From Actinidia chinensis (taxonomy: Eukaryota > Streptophyta > Magnoliopsida > Ericales > Actinidiaceae): 12,500 nucleotides of DNA. The notes under the pieces are model-generated. The model searched no databases and was not told where the DNA came from. It saw nothing but the letters and a program-made list of their open reading frames with translations. Of the stretch, positions 3,535-4,576 are shown one piece after another (positions within the stretch are counted from its first letter, which is position 1; every line of letters starts with the position of its first letter). A program made the translations under genes and the position numbers. Location: the NCBI GenBank assembly GCA_009663005.1, contig CM018906.1, positions 21,973,236 through 21,985,735 of the forward strand. The letters are read 5' to 3'.

Positions 3535-4576
3535 CAAATTATATTGTCTCCCATCAGTAAAACGACTTCAAATTATATTGTCTCCCATCAGTAAAACGAC
3601 TTCAAATTATATTGTCTCCCATCAGTAAAACGACTTCAAATTATATTGTCTCCCATCAGTAAAACGACTTCAAATTATATTGTCTCCCATCAGTAAAACG
3701 ACTTCAAATTATATTGTCTCCCATCAGTAAAACGACTTCAAATTATATTGTCTCCCATCAGTAAAACGACTTCAAATTATATTGTCTCCCATCAGTAAAA
3801 CGACTTCAAATTATATTGTCTCCCATCAGTAAAACGACTTCAAATTATATTGTCTCCCATCAGTAAAACGACTTCAAATTATATTGTCTCCCATCAGTAA
3901 AACGACTTCAAATTATATTGTCTCCCATCAGTAAAACGACTTCAAATTATATTGTCTCCCATCAGTAAAACGACTTCAAATTATATTGTCTCCCATCAGT
4001 AAAACGACTTCAAATTATATTGTCTCCCATCAGTAAAACGACTTCAAATTATATTGTCTCCCATCAGTAAAACGACTTCAAATTATATTGTCTCCCATCA
4101 GTAAAACGACTTCAAATTATATTGTCTCCCATCAGTAAAACGACTTCAAATTATATTGTCTCCCATCAGTAAAACGACTTCAAATTATATTGTCTCCCAT
4201 CAGTAAAACGACTTCAAATTATATTGTCTCCCATCAGTAAAACGACTTCAAATTATATTGTCTCCCATCAGTAAAACGACTTCAAATTATATTGTCTCCC
4301 ATCAGTAAAACGACTTCAAATTATATTGTCTCCCATCAGTAAAACGACTTCAAATTATATTGTCTCCCATCAGTAAAACGACTTCAAATTATATTGTCTC
4401 CCATCAGTAAAACGACTTCAAATTATATTGTCTCCCATCAGTAAAACGACTTCAAATTATATTGTCTCCCATCAGTAAAACGACTTCAAATTATATTGTC
4501 TCCCATCAGTAAAACGACTTCAAATTATATTGTCTCCCATCAGTAAAACGACTTCAAATTATATTGTCCTCCCATC
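3535..4576. repeat. 34-bp minisatellite, 30 identical units plus one diverged
   Basis: The unit starts CAAATTATATTGTCTCCCAT and ends CAGTAAAACGACTT. Thirty units from 3535 to 4554 are identical; a partial 31st (4555-4576) has one extra C. The period is confirmed by position: 3541 and 4561 are 1,020 bp (30 x 34) apart and in the same phase. On the minus strand one unit reads T-D-G-R-Q-Y-N-L, the Helitron protein motif just before 'PNAAEVVAII'. Because 34 is not a multiple of 3, later copies shift frame and meet stops. The array is bracketed by GGCAAATTA (3533-3541 and 4577-4585). There are no unique spacers, so it is not a CRISPR. Perfect identity implies very recent amplification or homogenisation, or an assembly effect on copy number. 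Confidence 0.97.

What the first reader, a model, noticed from the sequence alone, without database searches (positions are those of the whole stretch)
3535..4576. Perfect 34-bp minisatellite born from Helitron coding sequence
Thirty consecutive 34-bp units are base-identical, although everything around them is heavily decayed. One unit corresponds to the Helitron protein motif TDGRQYNL plus flanking codons, and the authentic downstream sequence (PNAAEVVAII) follows at the left edge. So a piece of a dead transposase gene became a tandem array. Identity this complete points to very recent expansion or active homogenisation. The unit could now be a seed for satellite DNA, or a source of phased small RNAs.
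Basis: partly seen in the sequence, partly recalled or inferred. Interest (0 to 1): 0.8.

Follow-up and report, generated by a model that had tools for sequence, protein, structure and literature searches.

The report
Young minisatellite inside dead Helitron gene
A 34-letter piece of a dead jumping gene is repeated 30 times without a single difference in one copy of a plant locus, while a second copy of the locus in the same assembly shows what looks like the starting point with only 1.6 repeats, a tidy but ordinary case of how tandem repeats are born.

Summary
The array is present in the assembly: 30 exact 34-bp units (3535-4554) plus an incomplete terminal unit (4555-4576). On the minus strand each unit is one base plus 11 codons of a Helitron Rep/helicase gene (SRFTDGRQYNL). 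Plant Helitron proteins carry versions of this motif and related downstream sequence. The Helitron is a broken fragment. The window's genome is held (638 Mb). The array and its left flank each hit only this locus and one unplaced 25-kb contig, C152. C152 carries the locus with 1.6 units: a 21-bp direct repeat at 34-bp spacing. The difference is 29 units plus one base. The seed sits at an internal deletion of about 70 codons shared by both copies. This fits the published model of minisatellite birth by slipped-strand mispairing at non-contiguous repeats. 'Satellite seed' and 'phased small RNAs' have no support: no third place was found, folding is weak and no frame is open. Without reads, assembly error (looped array in C19, or collapse in C152) is not excluded. 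New member of a known kind; modest interest.

The parts
3535..4554 (-). 30 identical 34-bp units (minus-strand unit: A + 11 codons SRFTDGRQYNL of the Helitron gene)
4555..4576 (-). incomplete terminal unit (21-bp core GATGGGAGACAATATAATTTG on the minus strand, here with one extra G)
   Evidence: C152 has the core without the extra base
4577..4585 (-). TAATTTGCC (minus strand) bordering the array; the same 9-mer lies at the other edge (3533-3541). Its TTTGCC may be the original Phe-Ala codons of PKFA
2841..3569 (-). downstream Helitron fragment (PNAAEVVAII..., Helitron_like_N), broken by stops and frameshifts
4577..4724 (-). upstream Helitron fragment (GPYIFR..QNHHKIGSLL..PK*FA, in two frames), ending at the array; homologs have a median of 70 more residues before SRFTDG

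Best explanation
A young minisatellite (VNTR) at a repair scar in a dead Helitron. Step 1 (shown by comparison with proteins): the element lost about 210 bp between the PKFA and SRFTDG codons. Step 2 (sequence shown, mechanism inferred): at that junction the 21-bp core occurs twice at 34-bp spacing. It arose either as templated filler copied from just downstream during end-joining, or as a 34-bp tandem duplication later clipped by the deletion. Step 3 (inferred from two copies of the locus): slipped-strand mispairing or unequal exchange between the two cores expanded the 34-bp period from 1.6 to 30.6 units in one copy of the locus; the other keeps the 1.6-unit seed. It has no evident function.
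For: 30 of 30 identical units and an incomplete terminal unit. C152 holds the same flanks with 1.6 units (TRF reports no 34-bp array in the 6,001 bases of L009); the length difference is 29 units + 1 base. The array and its left flank find only C19 and C152 in the genome (2 of 2 candidates scored in each search), so C152 is the same locus or a very recent copy, not one of a large family. Of 120 homologs, both edges could be placed in 10; all 10 have 62-82 residues (median 70) that are missing at the junction. The 30 bases between PK and AAGTCG in C152 are fully covered by two downstream words of 9 and 21 nt (in 2000 mononucleotide shuffles a shared 9-mer in 11, a shared 21-mer in 0).
Against: No reads, so the copy number in C19 is unverified. 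C152 is a noisy contig (251 mismatches and 609 indels over 7,465 aligned bases right of the array), so it may be an imperfect assembly of the same molecule. TTTGCC may be native, which leaves only the 21-bp core and TAA as filler. No undeleted paralog was found: the protein search of the genome did not complete, so the pre-deletion DNA is unknown. The direction (expansion, not contraction) is inferred.
Confidence: 0.6

Rival explanations
1. Assembly artefact: the true locus has 1.6 units and a consensus or gap-closing step walked the 34-bp loop about 29 extra times in C19, which would give perfectly identical units.
For: Perfect identity of 30 units; a 1.6-unit version exists; an extra base in the incomplete unit in C19 only.
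Against: 1 kb is short for long reads. The window copy looks accurate elsewhere: a 94-aa reverse transcriptase piece with an RVT_2 match is open in the window but split over three frames in C152 (the query there was the window's own translation). Perfect identity is also what a young array shows.
Confidence: 0.2
2. Collapse in C152: both copies of the locus have a long array and the noisy C152 contig lost it.
For: C152 is noisy, with an error-like spectrum (45 transitions, 206 transversions right of the array). Its length of exactly 25,000, and lengths in multiples of 2,500 in 10 of 14 other short contigs looked at, suggest cut scaffold debris.
Against: The kilobase left of the array is nearly error-free in C152 (2500-3534: 1,034 aligned bases, 2 mismatches, 1 single-base insertion), and the 1.6-unit junction is clean to the base.
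Confidence: 0.1
3. Contraction: the long array is the older state and C152 lost about 29 units.
For: Both copies share the same deletion edge and incomplete unit, which either direction allows.
Against: An old array would be expected to hold unit variants; none in 30 of 30.
Confidence: 0.08
4. Seed of a spreading satellite or a small-RNA locus.
For: Recent expansion of a TE piece; such origins of satellites are described (PMC7004042 abstract; PMC12628747 passages).
Against: The unit was found at this locus and on C152 only; folding energy of one unit is -2.4 kcal/mol; no expression data.
Confidence: 0.02

Closest known systems
Minisatellite birth by slipped-strand mispairing at non-contiguous repeats (Taylor and Breden 2000, known here only through passages of PMC3389668; the original is not held)
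   Same: Two separated direct repeats as seed, and an incomplete terminal unit beside full units.
   Different: Here in a Helitron gene of a plant; the seed state survives as a second copy in the same assembly. The terminal unit lacks 13 of 34 bp, more than the 10% limit that PMC3389668 used for its count.
Minisatellite origin by short flanking direct repeats (Haber and Louis 1998, known through passages of PMC3389668 and PMC6947457)
   Same: A direct repeat flanks the motif that became the unit.
   Different: The repeat is 21 bp and part of the unit, longer than the 5-10 bp of that model.
Tandem arrays within Helitron/Helentron elements (review PMC12628747, passages)
   Same: Tandem repeat inside a Helitron.
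   Different: The passages describe arrays in the elements' central regions, also shared between different elements; this array lies in the Rep/helicase coding region of one dead copy.
Plant satellites grown from short arrays in LTR retrotransposons (PMC7004042, abstract)
   Same: TE-internal tandem array that expanded.
   Different: One locus, about 1 kb, no dispersed family found.

Membership tests
TE-derived minisatellite | tandem units of about 10-100 bp whose sequence is part of a TE | tested here: met
   34-bp unit within a Helitron gene
TE-derived minisatellite | copy-number polymorphism (VNTR) | tested here: inconclusive
   1.6 vs 30.6 units in two contigs of one assembly; allele or assembly error not separable
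Taylor-Breden slipped-strand birth | ancestral non-contiguous direct repeats | tested here: met
   21-bp core twice, 13 bp apart, in C152; that C152 is the ancestral state is inferred
Taylor-Breden slipped-strand birth | incomplete terminal unit | tested here: met
   21-bp core plus one extra base instead of 34 bp at 4555-4576
Helitron (autonomous element) | Rep/helicase protein similarity | tested here: met
   PF14214 E 1e-36; 303 proteins at E <= 0.001 among 343 candidates
Helitron (autonomous element) | intact protein frame | tested here: not met
   frames broken by stops and shifts and about 70 codons missing; hence 'dead Helitron fragment'
Helitron (autonomous element) | element ends (5' TC, 3' hairpin and CTRR; recalled) | not tested
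   no search for ends was made
Satellite DNA | large arrays at many places of the genome | tested here: not met
   only C19 and C152 in one genome search, with that tool's stated limits for common words and withheld stretches
Phased small-RNA locus | phased 21/24-nt RNAs | not testable with these tools
   no RNA data

The most novel reading that the evidence does not exclude
One assembly holds both ends of a minisatellite's birth at single-base resolution: a two-core seed made by templated end-joining at a deletion in a transposon gene (C152), and the array it grew into by about 29 units (C19), with no variant unit. This suggests one or a few large expansion events in very recent, possibly heterozygous, time.
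Probability: 0.4. Interest if true: 0.45.

Novelty: new member of a known kind. Interest (0 to 1): 0.27.

Why it matters
How the first repeats of a minisatellite arise is usually inferred from finished arrays (my understanding, not a search result). A locus whose seed and expanded forms coexist with near-identical flanks would let the seed, the spacing and the size of the expansion step be read directly, and would tie the seed to a deletion-repair scar. It has no evident function, and the satellite and small-RNA ideas have no support.

Tried and rejected
Tried without yield: Rfam at gathering scores and tRNA search on the window; an exact 24-mer of the unit in viral contigs and prokaryote genome contigs; DNA similarity of window 3500-3700 in phages. 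Nothing was found, as expected for plant DNA. Control sample of 20 stretches of 10 kb for other perfect arrays: only 33,975 of 200,000 bases were readable, the rest read N. The best array among them with at least 2.5 copies and a period of 7 or more was 93% alike with 3 copies. The sample is too small to say anything about frequency. A tandem protein product was rejected: stops occur in every frame on both strands. True old divergence of C152 was rejected for the part right of the array: indels outnumber mismatches, transitions 45 vs transversions 206, and the RT piece is broken in C152 but open in the window. A first MAFFT comparison gave higher mismatch counts because it turned indels into mismatches; one search replaces it. 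A first script for comparing L009 found no file and gave nothing. Wanted but not obtained: undeleted Helitron paralogs in this genome (the protein search did not complete), and genome searches with the right flank and with the right part of the window (not completed).

Full report
Observation. TRF reports one array at 3535-4576, period 34, 30.6 copies. Comparing unit by unit, 30 of 30 full units are identical; the last, incomplete one (4555-4576) is a 21-bp core with one extra base. On the minus strand the unit is A followed by codons for SRFTDGRQYNL, and the sequence continues past the left edge as PNAAEVVAII. The array cannot encode a repeat protein, because 34 is not a multiple of 3 and each frame on both strands meets stops. 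The unit folds weakly (-2.4 kcal/mol for one unit), and there is no Rfam match at gathering scores and no tRNA in the window.

Host element. The fragment downstream of the array is Helitron_like_N, PF14214: E 9e-25 for the open stretch 2887-3159 and 1e-36 for the longer frame with stops read as X. A protein search gave 303 proteins at E <= 0.001 among 343 candidates; the best 120 were listed, and the organism names that could be read there are all flowering plants. I read 13 of them. Seven of the 13 reach far enough upstream to show P[KR]FAQLY. Twelve of the 13 cover the motif; it reads TDGRQYNM in P0002 and P0005, NDGRQYNL or KDGRQYNL in P0014 and P0016, and is more diverged in others (for example RNPSIYNL in P0001). 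In the window the upstream fragment ends at PK*FA and the array begins there. In 10 of 120 homologs both edges could be placed, some by extrapolating from an alignment that starts a few residues later; 62-82 residues (median 70) are missing between FA and SRFTDG. So the array lies at an internal deletion junction.

A second copy of the locus. The window lies in a held genome of 638,422,350 bases at C19:21973236-21985735. The dimer of the unit matched C19 and one other place, C152:23003-23063. The 645-bp left flank also matched only these two (2 of 2 candidates scored). C152 is an unplaced contig of exactly 25,000 bases, of which 15001-25000 was readable. It matches the window from about 1595 to about 12494 in opposite orientation. 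In C152 the array is just: TAATTTGCC, 21-bp core, 13 bp, 21-bp core, CCAAATG. The length difference is 987 bp, 29 units plus the extra base.

Is C152 an allele, a paralog or noise? Close to the array it is nearly identical to the window: at 2500-3534, 1,034 aligned bases show 2 mismatches and one single-base insertion in the last 35 bases; at 4587-5000, 413 aligned bases show 1 mismatch and 2 indels. Left of the array as a whole there are 5 mismatches and 13 indels in 1,932 aligned bases. Right of the array as a whole there are 251 mismatches and 609 indels in 7,465 aligned bases, rising with distance, with 45 transitions against 206 transversions. That spectrum looks like long-read error and not like evolution (recalled expectation). 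The copia-type RT piece (RVT_2, 7195-7479) is open in the window and broken over three frames in C152. Of C1-C29, 26 were looked at for length (20, 6) and all are 13.9-27.1 Mb. C30 and 13 later contigs looked at are 12.5-199 kb, and 10 of these 14 have lengths in multiples of 2,500, as a Hi-C scaffolder's cut debris would (recalled). The species is a guess and nothing rests on it. C152 is therefore most simply a poorly polished second copy, likely the other haplotype, of the same locus; a recent duplicate is not excluded.

How it arose. In C152 the 30 bases between PK and AAGTCG consist of two words found just downstream: TAATTTGCC (9 nt) and the 21-nt core (in 2000 mononucleotide shuffles, a shared 9-mer in 11 and a shared 21-mer in 0). 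That is what templated end-joining leaves (recalled), but TTTGCC may simply be the native Phe-Ala codons, and a 34-bp duplication later clipped by the deletion fits as well. The two cores at 34-bp spacing then form the non-contiguous repeat that the slipped-strand model of Taylor and Breden requires, with its predicted incomplete terminal unit. I know this model from passages of PMC3389668; the original paper is not held. With zero substitutions in 1,020 bp and rates of 5e-9 to 1e-8 per site and year (recalled), the array would be younger than about 0.3-0.6 million years at 95% if units evolve independently.

What it is not. There are no small-RNA data. TE-derived minisatellites and Helitron-borne tandem arrays are known (PMC12628747 passages; PMC6947457 passages; PMC7004042 abstract; PMC3389668 passages: over 20% of human minisatellites/satellites contributed by TEs). 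I did not see the particular case of an array from Helitron coding sequence with its seed preserved in the listings (20, 20 and 15 papers listed of 63, 79 and 80), which is weak evidence of absence.

Verdict. Observation confirmed; origin confirmed; function claims unsupported. Best reading: a young, probably polymorphic minisatellite grown from a two-core seed at a repair scar in a dead Helitron. Main doubt: copy number in an assembly that clearly holds poorly polished contigs.

Noticed in passing
window 929-1313: Cluster of palindromic TGTCGACA(C) motifs: 15 strand-matches to TGTCGACAC against 0.06 expected, irregularly spaced in low-identity 38-44-bp repeats; looks like the LTR or leader of a retrotransposon family (guess).
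   Followed up: partly
window 8698-9007; L020 3763-3810: GCGTTCGA motifs, 4 against 0.08 expected; a similar TGGCGTTCGAACGCT unit is tandem (3.1 copies) on another contig.
   Followed up: no
window 7195-7479 (+): Remnant of a copia-type reverse transcriptase (RVT_2, E 1.6e-9).
   Followed up: partly
window 5100-5160 and 5400-5470 (-): Two alike stretches upstream of the Helitron fragment (MQVLTMEREARKMSEPKRE / MQALTMEGEVHKMCGQIRR): possibly an older local duplication in the same dead element; seen by eye only.
   Followed up: no
L029 7000-9800: Long T-rich stretch of poorly defined repeats on C13, possibly unpolished or junk sequence.
   Followed up: no
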